Translations under genes and position numbers: made by a program | NCBI RefSeq assembly: GCF_033473495.1 | Contig: NC_088936.1 | Location: 186,001-250,000 of the forward strand | Source of the DNA: Cercospora beticola | Lineage: Eukaryota > Ascomycota > Dothideomycetes > Mycosphaerellales > Mycosphaerellaceae | Direction of reading: 5' to 3' | DNA: 64,000 nt | The notes under the pieces: generated by a model | The model's input: only the letters and a program-made list of their open reading frames with translations | What the model was told of the DNA's origin: nothing | Databases searched by the model: none | Shown: one piece after another, positions 5,387-21,049 of the stretch | How positions within the stretch are numbered: position 1 is the first letter of the stretch | How the letters are laid out: each line of letters starts with the position of its first letter

Positions 5387-5449
5387 GTATGTGGAAAGCT
5401 GTCGTATGTGGAAAGCTGTCGTATGTGGAAAGCTGTCGTATGTGGAAAG
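5387..5449. repeat. 17-bp tandem repeat, 3.7 copies, upstream of the Argonaute start
   Basis: The unit GTATGTGGAAAGCTGTC (plus strand) occurs at 5387-5403, 5404-5420 and 5421-5437 without mismatch, followed by 12 bases of a fourth copy at 5438-5449. The array begins 19 bp upstream of the Argonaute ATG, so it lies in the leader or core promoter. The unit is not a multiple of three. Confidence 0.95.
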
Positions 5450-8741: not shown

Positions 8742-9235
8742 GATATGAGCACGATGTGTGTAGATTATGCACTCTGAGCATACTTTTGTAAATTTGTCAA
8801 GGGATGTACAAAGCTACATTTTCTGCAGCCCGCTCCCAGCGGTTTCAGCTTCGCAGGCTTTGAAGAGGACAGCCGCCTGCACGATGGCCTCCCTGCCACT
8901 AAACAAGATCCCTCCGGCAACAGGCTTCTTATATTGAAGATAGCCAACAGTCCGTGAAATAGTTGAAAGAGCCTAGATGGTGTCTTCTATGGGACCCTTC
9001 GTAGCTTCGGCTAAGTAACCAAGCGAGCGCGTGCCAGTCAGGCTGCAGGACGTTACACGACAGCATGGGCCATGCATGTCAGATCGGGCACATCTCGTTC
9101 ACCAGCGCATCGCTCGCGCGAGGGCGCAGCCTTGCTGTGACCTGTGTTCCTCAGTAATTGATATTGCGGATGGAGTCCTTCAGACGTCGAAGCCAATTCC
9201 ATTTCTTAGCAATAAAAATAAAAGCCTCAGGAATC
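8742..9235. other. Intergenic spacer
   Basis: No supported gene. It contains the 3' end of the reductase gene and the presumed promoter of the HET-like gene. Short frames only. Confidence 0.4.
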
Positions 9236-11064
9236 ATGGAACCGACACCCACATCGACATATCAGCAACTTCCGAATGGGCGATGGATCAGAGTACTGCT
9301 TCTCGAGCCTGCCAAGTATCTAGACGATCCTTTAATCGCAACGCTTCAATTGCAAGATCTTGGAGAGCATCTACCAGCGTGGCCATTGCGGGATCCAGCG
9401 GATGGTCGATGGAAAGACAACGAGCACTACGAAAGAGCTTCATACGAGTACTGGCAAAAAATTAAAGCAGGTCGATCATCCTTTACCGCCCTCTCATACA
9501 GCTGGGCAACCGAAGACGGGGACGACTGTCGCACTCACTACATAGAGGTCGATCATTCACCTCATAAAATCACGAAAAGTCTGGCCGACGGACTCCGCCG
9601 CCTGAGATCAGCTACAACTACTGAAGTCCTGTGGATTGATGCCATATGCATCAACAAGAATGATTCATGCGAGCGCAACTCGCAGGTCTCCATGATGTTC
9701 GATATCTATCGATTGGCACGTCGCGTTATTGTGTGGCTGGGAAATGGCAATGCTGACTGTGATAACCACACATGTGCCCTAACACAGTGCGTCGGCGATA
9801 TTCTAAATTATGCGCACGAGAATGGAACTGGACCCGGGTTTCCATAGACAATAGAAAGCCATGTTCATGCCTTCGCTCAGACGGAGTTCGACATGTCTTC
9901 CACACTTCCAGGGTGTGACGGATGCCGCAGTCAATTTCTCGACGGAAGGTGTTTAAGCTTTGAACAACTCAACGTCGACAGAATGGTCATCGACATCGCA
10001 ATCGCTTTTAGAGCCCGTATCAAGGAGGATGACAAAGGTGCTTATCTCTTACGGGCAAAGATTTGAAGGCTGCGCACATCATCAGCCGCAGATATTGGAC
10101 AAGGCGTTGGATCATCCAAGAGAATCAAGCTCTGGTCGGCAAGGAGGATGGACGTATCGTGAGATGGGCTAATCATAGTTCTGATTCCACCACATTTCTC
10201 GTGACGGTCCTTGTTTGCATAGAGATCTGTGCGGATGGCCTCGAGACGTACGTTACGCAAGATTATGAACTATACTGGCACATCCGAAAGTTACACGACG
10301 CCGGTCGCGACCTTTGTCGCGTTATGACGGCAGACAGATCACAGCATGATCTTATTGATATGCTACGGATCTTCAAGAGCCACGAGTGCTCGACTCTGCA
10401 TGATCGATTATATTCTCTGGTCTCTCTAGACCCCACATACAGCTTCAGAGTCGACTACTCACTTTCGTTCCCACAATTATGCTTGGACTTCGCGAGAAAG
10501 GCAGTTGCGAAAGGAGACTTCCGTGTCCTGAACTACGCCTTCACCTGCAGTCTTTCGAAGGATCATCCTTTCAACAAATGCAGTCGGCTGGGTATTCCCT
10601 CATGGATGCCTGATTTTCGGATGGCTCCTGGTACATGGGGAACCGAAGATATCAGACTCATTTGCCAAACCCTTTCTTCAAGCATAATCGATGCCAGCTC
10701 TCAGCTGTCCTTGGAGCTCTTCTGGTTATGAGATGTGCGCGAAGTGGACAAAGTGCCGGGTATGGCGTTCAACCACTGGACGGCGGTGATGATAAACACG
10801 ACGTCCGAACCGCAGCCCTCGCACCTACTACAGATTCGTCTCCCATTTCAGGATCGTATTGAGCCAGAGATGATACAACCTGGCGACGCCATCTTTACGT
10901 TGGATTACACTCGATGGAATAGAAGCATTGTTGGTCTTCGACCTCTGGCTCACCATTTCACGCTGGTATTCGCCGTGAACGAGCTGTATCTGGTTGATGG
11001 TGACCATGACTGCACGAACTTTGATACGTTGCGGGGAAAAAAGAGGACTGTAACCATTGTGTGA
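9236..11064 (+). pseudogene. Decayed heterokaryon-incompatibility (HET) domain gene
   Basis: From the ATG at 9236 the frame reads a typical HET domain: FTALSYSW, then LWIDAICINKND, then VWLGNGNAD. It meets TAG at 9845-9847. The same frame continues to about 10066 with sensible sequence. A one-base frame shift just before 10063 then leads into WTRRWIIQE and SSTLHDRLYSLVSLDP-like sequence, which are late HET motifs. An in-frame TGA at 10729-10731 interrupts again before a tail to 11064. I tested an intron 9787-9847 (GTGCGT...TAG) and it breaks the frame. HET proteins trigger non-self recognition cell death. This copy looks inactive unless unusual splicing rescues it. Confidence 0.7.
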
Positions 11065-11156: not shown

Positions 11157-13226
11157 TCAATTTGCTCTCGTAGGAGAATCCTGCCTCTCCTCAATGCCCA
11201 GCTCTTTGATGAACAAATCAGCAGCCCGCTCACCAATCACGAACGCCGTGCCACCAGTATTCGCTCCCACATTCTCTGGCGGGATCGACAAATCAGCCAA
11301 CTTAAGATTTTCCAGGCCGTGAACACTCAGCTTCTCGTCAACAACGCCATTTTTCTCCTTCGGAGCCATCTTGCACGTTCCGAGCGAATGCCAAGTCGTC
11401 GACAAAATCTCTCGGACCCTCTGTTCAATCGCCTTGTTATCTTCCTCGGAGTACTCAATCCTCTCATCACCCTTCGCAATCGGTCCATCGGCCTTCTCAA
11501 CGACGGCAGCTTTCGAGCCTTCTGGGAAGCGTGGATGCGTCATGGCGAGCTCGCCGCGGAAAATTGGCATGCGGCGCCACATCTCCCGTGAGAGTTTGTA
11601 GGCCCAGATGTGTTTCTTCACATCGTTATCGCCTTGGTCTTTGAGCCAGCCGGTCTCGAAATCGGGACGATCAGCCATCGTCTTGCCGGTGATGTGGATG
11701 TGGCCGCGGCTGAAGGGGTAGCCCGTCCAGTTGGCTTGAGAGACGTACTCTGCATCATCGGGCAGCATGCTGTGGTCGCCGTAAAAGCTGGAGAATGTTA
11801 GCCATGTCAATGTTTGAGAGCGACAGTGTCGTACCAGTTGTAGAGAGCGAGGATCATCAAAGGACGGTCTGGGACGTCCTTGAAATCTCGATCCCAAGCC
11901 TTTCGAAACTCTGGTCCCAGCGCGTCGACCTCTTCTTCAGTAGGACGGAACTTTCCCTCTACGAATCATCAGCTGCCAATCGACCTCGAGACAAGAGAAG
12001 GTACTCACGTCCGTCCATTGCGTTGGTACCAAGCAACTCATCGTTCATCCTAATGGCTTCTTCAATGTTGAACCTTCCGTCCTGGAAGCCGTTGATGCAC
12101 TCTCTCGGCGCGAGGTTCGTTCGGTATGACCACAATGAGAGATGATGATCTTGGTAGTCCGATCCAACACCTGGAAGATCTTCGACAACTTCCACGCCAG
12201 CCTTCTTTAAGACCTCAGCGCCGCCGACTCCGGATCTCTCCAAGATACCTGGCGTAGCATTCGCACCGGCAGAGACGATGACCATCTTTCGTGCCTTCAC
12301 GACCCTAGGAGATACGTATCCGATATCGAGGTACTCTGGATTCGCCATAAACTTCGGGTTGGTCTGGTACTCCACGCCAGTTGCTTTTTTGCCATCGAAC
12401 ATAACACGCAACACCTGCTTCTCGGTCAAAACGTGCAAGTTCGGGTACTCGTTTCCTTGCAACTTTGGATGCAAGTACCGATGTGCAGCGTCTTGGCGTC
12501 TGCCATTCGGTCCAACATATCTGTAGTATCGCTCTACAGCATTATTATTGTCCAGATTCTGAAGATCTTGAACTTCTGGATATCCAAGCGCTGCTGCAGA
12601 TTCGACGAAGGCGTTTTCGGAGCGAGAGCAGGTGTAAGTGCCCTTGGATACATTGATGGGTCCGCTGTCGCCGTGACGGTCTTTGTCGCCTTTGCCATGG
12701 TAGGTTTCGAGCTTGAGAGCCAAATGTCAGAATATGGAAGACGTGAGGATAACACGACGTACCTTCTTCAAGAATGGCAGCATCTCATCTGCGCTCCAAC
12801 CGGGACACTTCCAGCTGTCGAAGTCGCTTCGCTGGGCTCGAGTGTATACCATCCAGTTCATTGCACTTCCGCCACCGAGTGTTCCACCCGAAGGCACGAT
12901 GGGCTTCCGGCCTGCCAGTTGCTCCGACTCATTGCCATGCCAGAATAGAGTGATCTTGCTCGTTGGAAAGAGGTTGCGTGGGTACAGAGCTGGATGAACG
13001 ACCTCGGGCATGCCATAATTGTTTGGTCCTTGTTCGATCACGAGGATTTTAAGGTTCTTGTCTGCTTCGGCGAGACGTCCTGCTACGACACAGCCCGCGA
13101 GACCGCCTGAAAGGATTGTTAGCCCTCGTGCATGGGAACATGGAGGAGATTCGAGAACGACTTACCTCCTGCGATGATCACGTCCACGTCATTGAGGTCG
13201 CTAGGTAGTTTCGTGTGGTACGGCAT
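11157..13226 (-). CDS. GMC oxidoreductase, alcohol (methanol) oxidase type
   Basis: CDS is complement(join(11157..11787,11835..11958,12009..12711,12763..13106,13166..13226)), 620 aa. All four introns (47-59 bp) have GT/AG ends, and joining them restores continuous homology. The FAD-binding GGGLAGC lies at residues 20-26, following IIA. The GMC signature GGTLGGGSAMNWMVYTR comes next. The C-terminal domain has STTWHSLGTCKMAP (catalytic His) and NVGANTGGTAF (second active-site residue). Motif order and the YPFSRGHIHIT block resemble methylotrophic-yeast AOX/MOX. Reaction: short or aromatic primary alcohol plus O2 to aldehyde plus H2O2. Methanol oxidases end in a peroxisomal signal, but this one ends in Thr-Arg-Ala-Asn, which is not a PTS1. 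No signal peptide is seen either, so it may be cytosolic. Confidence 0.88.
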
Positions 13227-15300: not shown

Positions 15301-16320
15301 CTACCCATTTCTCCTCACTGCCCTCCCAGCAGCTCTCGCACCACCTCCCGGCGGCTTCTTTACCACCATCCACATCATGATCGTCGTCGCCAAACTCAAC
15401 GAGAACCATGTGAAGATGTATTGTGTATGATTGTTCCTCAAGTTAACCTCAGGCGGCCTCCCAATCGGTATACCCTTCTCCGTTCTCCTGTACGTCTCCA
15501 ACAAATCATTTTTCATCGTCTCTTCAATCCATACTGGCTGACTGCCACTATGCTCCGCCATTTGCTTCACATCTGGGAAATGCCACACGCCCTCCTGTGG
15601 TACATTGTCCGGGGTAAACATATTCTTCTTCCAAGGCTCCCTCAGTAGACCTTGCACCACGACTTCACCAGTCGGCAGTCCCTCCGGCCTCTTCGCCTGC
15701 GAAGCTTTGTCCTTGGGAATCCAACCTCTGCATACCAGGATCGTGCTTCCTTCACCCTGGTCTTCTCGAACCAATGGCGTAATGACCAAGTACCCGTCTT
15801 CTCCATCTAATAGTCTCGGCCCGATCAACATCTCCCTCGAATGATCAAACTTTCCCCTCGCGTACACCCTTCGGTAGTCGAATTCTTGAATCGCATCGGG
15901 ATCTATCCTCGGAGGAAGAGGAAGCGGATCTCGAATCAACCGATCCTCAAACTTCGCGATGAGGTCGGTCTTCCATGTCAGACGCTGGACTTGCCAACAG
16001 CCGAGGATGAAAGCTGTGATTGGAATTGTCGCGAGGAAAGCAAGGCCGTAGAAGTTATGTTTCTTCCCGGCGCGAATGAGAACTGGTGGTGTATCTGCGA
16101 GGCCAACAAAGTTTGGGTCATCGCCAGGTTGATCGTATTTTGTGCTATTGTGTCGGCGTGATTGTCGTTGGTGCTGTTGGCTTCGCTGGCGCGCGGAGCG
16201 GAGGAGCTGAGATGGGGAGGGCGGAGTTTCGCGGCGGTGGAGGCAACGTCTGCAGATCCATTGCGGTGTCAAGGGCTTGGCGTTGGCGAAGGACCGCCAA
16301 AGCAAACGCGAGCGATCCAT
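15301..16320 (-). CDS. SHY1: SURF1/SHY1-like cytochrome c oxidase assembly protein
   Basis: Single exon, 339 aa. The ATG at 16320 begins a long Arg/Ser/Gln-rich leader (residues 1-60) typical of mitochondrial import. The frame is open upstream only to a GTG. Two membrane segments frame the protein: residues about 92-108 (YGLAFLATIPITAFILG) and a C-terminal one near residues 300-322 (TQYIFTWFSLSLATTIMMW). Between them is the intermembrane-space SURF1 domain, with GCWQVQRL, FDHSREMLIGPR and GEVVVQGLLREP. SURF1 proteins help insert heme a into Cox1 during complex IV assembly. Topology and length match the family. The gene stands alone, minus strand. Confidence 0.93.
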   Translation of the reverse strand: MDRSRLLWRSFANAKPLTPQWICRRCLHRRETPPSPSQLLRSARQRSQQHQRQSRRHNSTKYDQPGDDPNFVGLADTPPVLIRAGKKHNFYGLAFLATIPITAFILGCWQVQRLTWKTDLIAKFEDRLIRDPLPLPPRIDPDAIQEFDYRRVYARGKFDHSREMLIGPRLLDGEDGYLVITPLVREDQGEGSTILVCRGWIPKDKASQAKRPEGLPTGEVVVQGLLREPWKKNMFTPDNVPQEGVWHFPDVKQMAEHSGSQPVWIEETMKNDLLETYRRTEKGIPIGRPPEVNLRNNHTQYIFTWFSLSLATTIMMWMVVKKPPGGGARAAGRAVRRNG

Positions 16321-16734: not shown

Positions 16735-16737
16735 CTA

Positions 16738-17124
16738 CTCCTCGCCACCCAGCGCCTGCCAGATCATAGGCCACGACTGAATCAGTGCTCCAAGGACAGG
16801 TTCCGGGTCTCGTGCTACCAAGTTGGCAAGATCTCGCTTCTCCTCTCCACCCAGTGCCTGCCACATCATTGGGAAGGAGTTGATGAAGGCTGCAAGAATT
16901 GGGTCCGCTTCGCGCGCGGCAAGTGCATTCAAATCACGCTTCTCTTCGCCACCGAGCGCTTGCCACATCATGGGGAAAGAATTGATGAAGGCCCCAAGGA
17001 TAGGATCGGCGTCCCGCGCGGCCAAGTTGGCGAGATCTCGCTTCTCCTCTCCACCAAGTGCCTGCCACATCATAGGCAACGAGTTGATAAATGCTCCGAG
17101 AATGGGATCCGCTTCGCGTGCTGC
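16738..17124 (-). repeat. Class B peptide repeats, four copies, 102-bp period
   Basis: Copies run 17124-17044 (partial unit), 17043-16942, 16941-16840 and 16839-16738. Each full unit encodes 34 residues: KR, an eight-residue spacer ending in AR or VAR-like sequence, an acidic Pro dipeptide pair, then the 20-residue core. The last copy diverges most (Trp for Phe before PM, Ile for Met). Confidence 0.9.
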
Positions 17125-17127
17125 CTA

Positions 17128-17310
17128 CGCGTCCAGATCGCGCTTCTTGAAACCCATGAACCACTTGCGGGCGGTGTTGCTGATCCAATCACCTAGACCA
17201 GCCTCCGCCTCGCGTCTGAGCATGTCCACGTCCATGTCGCGCTTCTCGAAGCCCATGAACCATTTGCGAGCGGTGCTGCTTATCCAATCGCCCAGTCCGG
17301 CTTCGGCTTC
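17128..17310 (-). repeat. Class A peptide repeats, two copies, 99-bp period
   Basis: Residues 36-68 (17310-17212) and 69-96 (17211-17128) are tandem copies. The cores differ at one position (Ser versus Asn in ISSTAR/ISNTAR) and at the residue before the KR site (Glu versus Lys). The core is amphipathic, with Trp, Phe, Arg and Lys. Confidence 0.9.
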
Positions 17311-17415
17311 ACGTCTGAAGATCTCGAGACTCGCATCGCGACGCGCGATGTCGAATGCAGGAGCCGCGTAGGCAGAGCCAGCAAGGGCAATGGTGGTGAT
17401 CGTGGAGAAACGCAT

Positions 17416-19975: not shown

Positions 19976-21049
19976 TTATTTCATCAGAAGCGTTCTTCGT
20001 CGCGACCGGCGTCGATACAGTCCTAGCGACACACAAGCAAGCAGCGCAAGAGCTGCCAGTCCGACAACGAGCAAGGGCCGATCGACGAGCCAAAGCACAA
20101 CTGCGACATCGTCTTCGTGCCACGTGCCACCAGGGCTGTGACCGAAGAAAGTGTACTCTTCCGAGTAGAACTCCAATGGCAGGACGCGAACAATGTCTAG
20201 CGACATGACATCAGTATCCGTATCGTGGACGTGAAGATTGAGCTTTATGCAAGCATGAGACTCACCAGCATCAGTTCCCTTCGCCCCTCCTGCAGACCAC
20301 CACTCCTTCACCATGTCACTCGCAAACTGTGGCCCAGTACTCCAAAAGATAGTCACATACGGAAACACCAACCACCTATTCCTCGGCATCAATCTCTTCA
20401 CCATTCTTTCCATCAACGGATGTTTCGCTCGACTGGCCATCAAGTCATTGTTAAGCCCCAAGGGTGTAGCCTTCGGCAGCCATGCAGGCCACCTCAGCAA
20501 AGGCGTCAGGGGTCGCCGACAGGCGATGTCCAAATCCATATAGATACCTCCGAAGTGGTAGAGGATGAAGTATTTGATAGCATCGACGCGTTGGATGGGG
20601 TAGCGGTAGGAGTCGTACGTCGGGAGGAACCAGGGGTAATGCGTTTCGAGCAGGGCGCGGGAGGCGGAGGCGTTCCAGGTTGTGATGGTGAAGTTTGGGT
20701 TGTGAAATTGGCAGAGCTCAGGAGCTTTTGAGCCCATGGAGGGAATGAGGGTGCGGTCAGTATGGGTTTCGTAGAGGTTCTCGAAGAATATGAAGTGGAT
20801 CGCAGGCGGAATGTCGTAGTCGGGGGATGGGGATGGAGGGTAGGAAGTATAGTCGTATTGCAACTTTTGCCGGTCGGCAGTCGATTGCTGCAGTGCTGTG
20901 GTGTACTCAAAGGGGAAGTCGTTGAATGAGATGGATGAAGAGCCAAGGAAGTGGTCGAAAGATATCTGTTTGACGGCCAGATGGAGGAGATACACCAGAT
21001 AGAGAATCGGTACGGCTTTGAAAATGAGTGACAAACGTCGGGACTCCAT
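19976..21049 (-). CDS. Inositol-phosphoceramide mannosyltransferase-like glycosyltransferase (DXD family)
   Basis: CDS is complement(join(19976..20196,20266..21049)), 334 aa. The intron 20197..20265 (GTGAGT...GCTAG) is 69 bp and in frame. An N-terminal membrane anchor spans residues about 11-27. The catalytic core has PPAIHFIFFE, YPIQRVDAIKYFILYHFGG and the DXD motif at YMDLDIACRRPL (Asp172, Asp174), which binds Mn-GDP-mannose in this family. GHSPGGTWH is also typical. A second membrane segment near the C terminus ends in an Arg-rich tail. The closest known types are yeast SUR1/CSH1, which add mannose to inositol phosphoceramide in the Golgi. The acceptor is inferred. The only ATG that fits is 21049; the frame upstream begins with TTG. 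Confidence 0.85.
   Translation of the reverse strand: MESRRLSLIFKAVPILYLVYLLHLAVKQISFDHFLGSSSISFNDFPFEYTTALQQSTADRQKLQYDYTSYPPSPSPDYDIPPAIHFIFFENLYETHTDRTLIPSMGSKAPELCQFHNPNFTITTWNASASRALLETHYPWFLPTYDSYRYPIQRVDAIKYFILYHFGGIYMDLDIACRRPLTPLLRWPAWLPKATPLGLNNDLMASRAKHPLMERMVKRLMPRNRWLVFPYVTIFWSTGPQFASDMVKEWWSAGGAKGTDAGESHACIKLNLHVHDTDTDVMSLDIVRVLPLEFYSEEYTFFGHSPGGTWHEDDVAVVLWLVDRPLLVVGLAALALLACVSLGLYRRRSRRRTLLMK

What the first reader, a model, noticed from the sequence alone, without database searches (positions are those of the whole stretch)
16735..17415. Secreted precursor encoding two unrelated repeated peptides in one reading frame
Seen: signal peptide, two tandem copies of an amphipathic Trp/Phe/Arg peptide (99-bp period), then in the same frame four copies of a hydrophobic PMMWQALGG-type peptide (102-bp period), separated by Lys-Arg or Ala-Arg sites. 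Known: fungal Kex2-processed repeat proteins, alpha-factor, Rep1-like repellents and RiPP precursors use this design, but normally with one peptide class. Neither core matches a pheromone or RiPP I know, and there is no cysteine. This is a candidate for an undescribed secreted peptide system (signalling, surface activity or antimicrobial).
Basis: partly seen in the sequence, partly recalled or inferred. Interest (0 to 1): 0.88.

Follow-up and report, generated by a model that had tools for sequence, protein, structure and literature searches.

The report
Fungal two-peptide precursor, interrupted by stop
A fungal gene for a secreted protein that is cut into small repeated peptides of two kinds, a known style of fungal precursor, but in this genome a stop codon separates the first kind from the second, so probably only the first is made.

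Summary
The repeats are real (minus strand), but "one reading frame" is wrong here. The frame with signal peptide and two class-A units (17415-17125, 96 aa) ends in an in-frame TAG; four class-B units (17124-16735) follow in the same frame behind it, and I found no intron with consensus signals that removes it. The two-class design is genuine: a paralogue on another contig (439 aa, one genomic ORF) and the Cercospora zeae-maydis protein model CERZMDRAFT_95517 (250 aa) carry both blocks in one frame. Both blocks show strong purifying selection. Units share a scaffold of X-A/X-P dipeptides, core, EKR and spacer; the single-Arg starts fit the published Kex2 motif LxxR (10 of 19) or a looser form of it (17 of 19). 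This is a KEX2-processed repeat protein (KEP), a known class in which more than one repeat type per protein is common (PMC7329392). Best reading: a linear-peptide KEP of the Cercospora lineage whose B block was recently disconnected in this genome. Peptide function is inferred only: perhaps membrane- or surface-active.

The parts
17125..17415 (-). ORF of 96 aa (P0001): signal peptide, short pro-region, two class-A units, ends at TAG
   Evidence: an identical 96-aa database entry is given with a contig of 4,891,443 bases, whereas the window's contig has 5,229,751
17365..17415 (-). signal-peptide-like N-terminus (residues 1-17), followed by AP; no predictor was run
   Evidence: by inspection; 18 of 20 identical to C. 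zeae-maydis, 19 of 20 to C. zeina, 14 of 19 to the paralogue
17248..17310 (-). class-A core 1, EAEA + 17 residues, preceded by RR, followed by EKR
17149..17211 (-). class-A core 2, EAEA + 17 residues, preceded by RR, followed by KKR
17125..17127 (-). in-frame TAG between the A block and the B block
   Evidence: no stop inside the paralogue ORF or the C. zeae-maydis protein model
16735..17124 (-). same-frame continuation (P0002, 129 aa) with four class-B units, ending in its own TAG; no signal peptide of its own
17044..17115 (-). class-B core 1
16942..17013 (-). class-B core 2
16840..16911 (-). class-B core 3
16738..16809 (-). class-B core 4, terminal and most diverged

Best explanation
The gene is a Kex2-processed repeat protein (KEP) of a fungus related to Cercospora. 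Shown by sequence: signal-like N-terminus, repeated cores, basic sites, two core classes on a shared scaffold, and relatives with both blocks in one frame. Inferred from known enzymes: in the secretory pathway Kex2 cuts after KR/RR and after single Arg in an LxxR-like context, Kex1 removes the trailing KR, and Ste13 removes the X-Ala/X-Pro dipeptides (EAEA, EADP, DPEA), freeing linear peptides of about 17 (A) and 18-20 (B) residues. In this genome the TAG limits the product to the A peptides; the B block is a recent relic (inferred), still without frameshift or further stop. The peptides most likely act outside the cell at membranes or surfaces, as amphipathic helices; this last step is a guess from composition.
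For: Repeats and sites. Uninterrupted paralogue C8:1073083-1074399, 439 aa. C. zeae-maydis CERZMDRAFT_95517, 250 aa, E 7e-69 against a four-row family profile, both blocks contiguous; C. zeina BST61_g2580, 82 aa, E 2e-18 against P0001, two A-type units. Synonymous excess in both blocks. Of 27 unit starts examined, 8 are dibasic and 19 single-Arg; of the 19, 10 are LxxR and 17 have L, I, V or M at P4; 26 of 27 are followed by two X-A/X-P dipeptides (the starts were located with a motif of that kind, so the last count is partly circular). One kexin-type P-domain match (PF01483) and, among five DPPIV-type matches (PF00930), two over nearly the whole profile. Helical hydrophobic moment exceeds shuffles for 14 of 14 units of the window gene, C. 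zeina and C. zeae-maydis (p 0.004-0.027; several of these cores are identical or nearly so, thus not independent).
Against: No expression or peptide data. Amphipathicity is not seen in the paralogue (0 of 13 units at p < 0.05), so it is not a property of the whole family. Net charge of the window's A peptides is only 0 to +1 and of B -2, unlike typical cationic antimicrobial peptides. Fold prediction of P0005 was uninformative (mean pLDDT 39.4). The C. zeina model also ends after its two A units, so loss or separation of the B block may not be unique to this genome; its DNA, and that of the C. zeae-maydis model, could not be seen, so an annotated intron in either is not excluded. That the database copy with the same stop is an independent assembly or strain is not shown.
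Confidence: 0.62

Rival explanations
1. The B block is still expressed through stop-codon readthrough or a minor splice form, so the gene makes A alone most of the time and A plus B sometimes.
For: B1-B3 differ by only 2 non-synonymous changes per pair against 8-15 synonymous; 129 codons stay open to a terminal stop. 34 in-frame GT..AG pairs of 35-250 bases span the TAG.
Against: 0 of the 34 have consensus donor, YAG acceptor and branch site together. The stop context (GCG TAG GCA) is not one of the efficient readthrough motifs that I recall. The two relatives with both blocks have no stop there. A recent stop explains the open frame equally well.
Confidence: 0.1
2. The TAG is an assembly or base-calling error and the gene is intact.
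For: It is a single codon in an otherwise open, selected frame; the paralogue and the C. zeae-maydis model are uninterrupted.
Against: A database entry of identical 96-aa sequence is given with a contig of another size than the window's, which suggests a second assembly with the same stop, though possibly of the same strain or another version of the same assembly.
Confidence: 0.12
3. The gene is a mating-pheromone-type precursor and the peptides are signals.
For: Kex2 plus X-A/X-P motif is the alpha-factor layout (PMC6339444 text; PMC9769878 passages).
Against: No cysteine in the five proteins, hence no W-C...C core (motif recalled); two core classes and a paralogue with different cores; X-A/X-P motifs also occur in KEPs of basidiomycetes, whose mating pheromones are of another type. 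A degenerate pattern scan for a W-C-type pheromone gene found 13 scattered matches against 6 for the reversed control, with no tandem array; the true pheromone gene was not identified.
Confidence: 0.12
4. Ribosomal cyclic peptide (dikaritin/ustiloxin type) precursor.
For: Same precursor architecture; the genome has many UstYa matches and one Tyr-rich KEP beside five of them. The C. zeae-maydis B unit resembles a unit of that Tyr-rich KEP (L040) better than shuffles (p 0.0002, 7 of 13 aligned residues identical, mostly the scaffold around EKRD), and P0005 found it with E 0.003. The C. zeae-maydis A2 and B cores contain Tyr.
Against: Nearest UstYa match on the same contig is 527 kb from the window gene and 65.5 kb from the paralogue; no tyrosine in the A or B cores of the window.
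Confidence: 0.04

Closest known systems
KEX2-processed repeat proteins (KEPs; Le Marquer 2019 PMC6339444, Umemura 2020 PMC7329392)
   Same: Signal peptide, internal repeats, Kex2 sites between repeats; more than one repeat type per protein is reported as common; most types limited to one genus.
   Different: Core sequences not matched to any described type (the type tables in the supplements were not readable here); in this genome the two repeat types are split by a stop codon.
CERZMDRAFT_95517, Cercospora zeae-maydis (hypothetical protein)
   Same: Same signal peptide (18 of 20), class-A cores 15 of 17 identical, two A and four B units, same scaffold.
   Different: Uninterrupted protein model (DNA not seen); class-B core only 6-8 of 20 identical; an extra non-repeated Tyr-containing peptide between its two A units.
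BST61_g2580, Cercospora zeina (hypothetical protein)
   Same: Signal peptide 19 of 20; two A-type units.
   Different: 82-aa model ends after the second A core; no B block in the model.
Paralogue at C8:1073083-1074399 of the same genome (P0004)
   Same: Same N-terminus type, X-A/X-P motifs, KRD...R spacers, two blocks of different cores, both in one frame.
   Different: Cores not demonstrably related to A or B (p 0.1-0.7); 13 units; no excess helical moment.
Ascomycete alpha-factor precursors
   Same: Kex2 plus Ste13-type dipeptides and repeats (works like).
   Different: No cysteine core; two classes.
Candidalysin precursor Ece1 and Ustilago Rep1
   Same: Linear Kex2-released peptides, cytolytic or fibril-forming (as described in PMC9769878 passages).
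   Different: No sequence comparison made; resemblance is of design only.

Membership tests
KEP (KEX2-processed repeat protein) | Signal peptide | tested here: met
   By inspection and by conservation across P0001, P0003, P0004, P0005; no signal predictor run
KEP (KEX2-processed repeat protein) | Internal repeats | tested here: met
   Tandem Repeats Finder; two A units before the stop
KEP (KEX2-processed repeat protein) | KEX2 sites between repeats | tested here: met
   RR before and KR/KKR after both A units; KR ends 3 of 4 B units, all 4 B starts are single Arg
KEP (KEX2-processed repeat protein) | All repeats in one protein | tested here: not met
   Met for the two A units; not for the B block in this genome. 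Met in the paralogue ORF and the C. zeae-maydis model
KEP (KEX2-processed repeat protein) | Peptides released in vivo | not testable with these tools
   needs peptidomics
Dikaritin / ustiloxin-type RiPP | UstYa (PF11807, DUF3328) gene nearby | tested here: not met
   of 63 genome matches the nearest on C2 is 527 kb away
Dikaritin / ustiloxin-type RiPP | Tyr in the core peptide | tested here: not met
   no Tyr in the window's A or B cores; the C. zeae-maydis A2 and B cores do contain Tyr
Ascomycete alpha-pheromone precursor | X-A/X-P dipeptides after the Kex2 site | tested here: met
   EAEA twice in P0001; EADP, DADP, EADP, DPEP in P0002
Ascomycete alpha-pheromone precursor | Cys-paired Trp-Cys core of filamentous ascomycetes (recalled) | tested here: not met
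   no Cys in five proteins
Ece1 / Rep1-like surface or membrane peptides | Membrane lysis or surface activity | not testable with these tools
   only helical moments computed

The most novel reading that the evidence does not exclude
A and B form a matched two-component peptide pair, delivered in a fixed 1:2 copy ratio from one precursor (2:4 in the window gene if both blocks are counted, 2:4 in C. zeae-maydis, 4:8 in the paralogue, leaving out one odd unit in each of the latter two; the C. zeina model, 2:0, does not fit), with cores swapped in and out of a shared Kex2/Ste13 scaffold; and the TAG between the blocks is a switch, leaky or polymorphic between strains, that lets the fungus make A alone or A with B.
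Probability: 0.06. Interest if true: 0.75.

Novelty: new member of a known kind. Interest (0 to 1): 0.4.

Why it matters
Most KEP-derived peptides have no known function (PMC9769878 passage). Here is a small, so far lineage-limited family with an uninterrupted paralogue, a named relative in C. zeae-maydis, and a natural separation of the two peptide classes. Comparing species and strains with and without an accessible B block offers a direct way to ask whether such precursors deliver peptides that work in pairs or independently. It also points to single-Arg, LxxR-like sites as a regular boundary inside KEPs, which mining for dibasic sites alone could miss.

Tried and rejected
Splicing around the TAG: 34 in-frame GT..AG pairs of 35-250 bases, none with all consensus signals; a first, stricter list of 40-150 bases gave one candidate, out of frame and without branch site. 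Homology of A and B cores: suggestive only (p 0.02-0.04; 0.17 in C. zeae-maydis); profile comparison found nothing and the unit tree has weak deep support. One-to-one relation of A with the paralogue's a block or B with its b block: not shown (p 0.1 and 0.7). Pfam on the four proteins: P0001 and P0002 gave only hits below cut-off, P0003 none; P0004 gave one hit above it, Metallothionein family 11 (30.8 bits, cut-off 27), rejected because P0004 has no cysteine. PDB by sequence, P0004 only: one hit at E 0.51, not used. AlphaFold2 of P0005 without alignment: mean pLDDT 39.4, not used. Pheromone pattern scan: inconclusive; 2 of its 13 places were read. The L003 and L008 matches (E 0.08 and 0.18) lie in open frames of 1177 and 1454 aa, and L007 (E 0.02) is the opposite strand of the paralogue; all three were dropped, only L003 having been looked at. 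Database search with the B piece alone: 5382 candidates, none at E <= 10. Paper searches for the named proteins or for Cercospora with Kex2: no paper for two of them, and one review, seen in the listing only, for the third.

Full report
What is there. On the minus strand, an ORF runs from 17415 to 17125 (96 aa). It begins with a signal-like stretch and holds two copies of EAEA + GLGDWIS(S/N)TARKWFMGF, with RR before and EKR or KKR after. It ends at a TAG. The same frame then stays open for 129 codons, 17124 to 16738, with four copies of a (E/D)-(A/P)-(D/E)-P + ILGAFINSFPMMWQALGGEE-type unit, and closes with a second TAG at 16735-16737.

Is the stop bypassed? Of 34 in-frame GT..AG pairs of 35-250 bases spanning the stop, none combines a consensus donor, a YAG acceptor and a branch site. 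The protein database holds a 96-aa entry identical to the truncated ORF, given with a contig of 4,891,443 bases, while the window's contig has 5,229,751. This suggests that a second assembly has the same stop, but its independence is not shown.

Were the repeats selected? Yes, both blocks. A1 against A2: 12 synonymous and 2 non-synonymous differences, over 14.7 and 60.3 sites. B1 against B2: 15 and 2, over 15.2 and 56.8. B1 to B3 differ by 2 non-synonymous changes in each of the three pairs; B4, the terminal unit, is looser (9 to 11 non-synonymous). In the paralogue the a block (4 of 4 units) has pooled pS 0.53 and pN/pS 0.05; the b block (6 of 8 units, those that my pattern caught) has pS 0.22 and pN/pS 0.24. 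So the window repeats are old, not fresh copies, and the B block was under constraint until recently or still is. No frameshift or further stop has accumulated in it.

Relatives. In the same genome (36.07 Mb, 10 contigs, unnamed) one paralogue was found at C8:1073083-1074399: 439 aa, uninterrupted, four a units, one odd unit, eight b units. With P0001, P0004, P0002 and P0005 as queries no other convincing paralogue appeared; P0005 also touched the Tyr-rich KEP L040 at E 0.003. Three searches of the protein database (all that were allowed; E limits 10, 10 and 1; the third scored only the 7996 candidates sharing most words) gave two named proteins: Cercospora zeina BST61_g2580 (82 aa, two A-type units) and C. 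zeae-maydis CERZMDRAFT_95517 (250 aa; A, odd peptide, A, then four B units with identical cores). The search takes only proteins of certain lengths, so relatives may have been missed. The C. zeae-maydis model shows A and B in one precursor; its DNA was not seen. Class A is conserved between the two species (15 of 17), class B much less (6 to 8 of 20). The host of the window is therefore probably Cercospora or a close relative; this is inference.

Processing. Across the five sequences I examined 27 unit starts: 8 dibasic, 19 single Arg. Of the 19, 10 are LxxR and 17 have L, I, V or M four residues before the cut; of the other two, one has the stop at that place and one has Asn. LxxR is given as an expanded Kex2 motif for fungal effectors in PMC8528282 (passages), and products ending at single Arg were seen when KEPs were expressed in Pichia (PMC9769878 passages). 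The Arg inside the A cores (STAR, NTAR, NAAR) lacks that context; MIYR inside the C. zeae-maydis B core has Met there, so the looser form of the rule would also cut that core, which counts against using it. X-A/X-P dipeptides follow 26 of 27 starts, but the starts were located partly by that motif. Kexin-type and DPPIV-type matches are present.

Are A and B unrelated? Whole units align better than shuffles (p 0.0004), and in C. zeae-maydis the scaffold around A2 and B1 is the same letter for letter (DPEA ... EKRDVDGLEAR; whole-unit p 0.0002). Cores alone: p 0.02-0.04 within the window gene, 0.17 within C. zeae-maydis, nothing by profile. The most economical view is one scaffold carrying different cores.

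Function. After removal of X-A/X-P the window's A peptides are 17-18 residues with net charge 0 to +1; its B peptides are 20 with net -2. Helical moments exceed shuffles in 14 of 14 units of the window gene, C. zeina and C. zeae-maydis (p 0.004-0.027; many of these cores are alike, so the tests are not independent), but in 0 of 13 paralogue units at 0.05. I therefore lean to membrane- or surface-active linear peptides, with low confidence; signalling is the main rival. No UstYa match is near (527 kb on the same contig; 65.5 kb for the paralogue), so a cyclic dikaritin is unlikely, although the scaffold of the C. zeae-maydis B unit resembles that of the genome's Tyr-rich, UstYa-associated KEP (p 0.0002), which may mean a shared origin of the precursors.

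What is known. KEPs were defined by signal peptide, internal repeats and Kex2 sites between repeats (PMC6339444: abstract, opening part and passages). [quoted passage not shown] In Coprinopsis, deletion of kep genes gave no detectable phenotype and the synthetic peptides tested showed no antibacterial activity (PMC9769878 passages), which warns against assuming an antimicrobial function. I found no paper naming these proteins, but supplements could not be searched, so they may be listed there.

Verdict. A real, selected, two-class KEP, new in sequence as far as I could see but of a known kind, and interrupted by a stop in this genome.

Noticed in passing
L040 (C8:1146927-1147163 +): Another KEP with three Tyr-rich cores (QYIG(T/V)PYAYYNNYKDA..., read by eye from the DNA) lies 2-7 kb from five UstYa matches at C8:1139942-1145101: looks like a dikaritin-type RiPP cluster.
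   Followed up: partly
P0005 residues 59-84 (C. zeae-maydis): A third, non-repeated Tyr-containing peptide is inserted between the two A units; similarity to the Tyr-rich core of L040 is not significant (p 0.18).
   Followed up: partly
genome G000: 63 UstYa (PF11807) matches over the cut-off in one 36-Mb genome, several close together (exon pieces count apart, so fewer genes).
   Followed up: no
window 9170-9847, 11157-11768, 15301-16320, 19976-21049: HET-domain ORF, GMC oxidoreductase C-terminal piece, SURF1 gene, DXD glycosyltransferase.
   Followed up: no
window 5387-5449: Perfect 17-bp tandem repeat, 3.7 copies.
   Followed up: no
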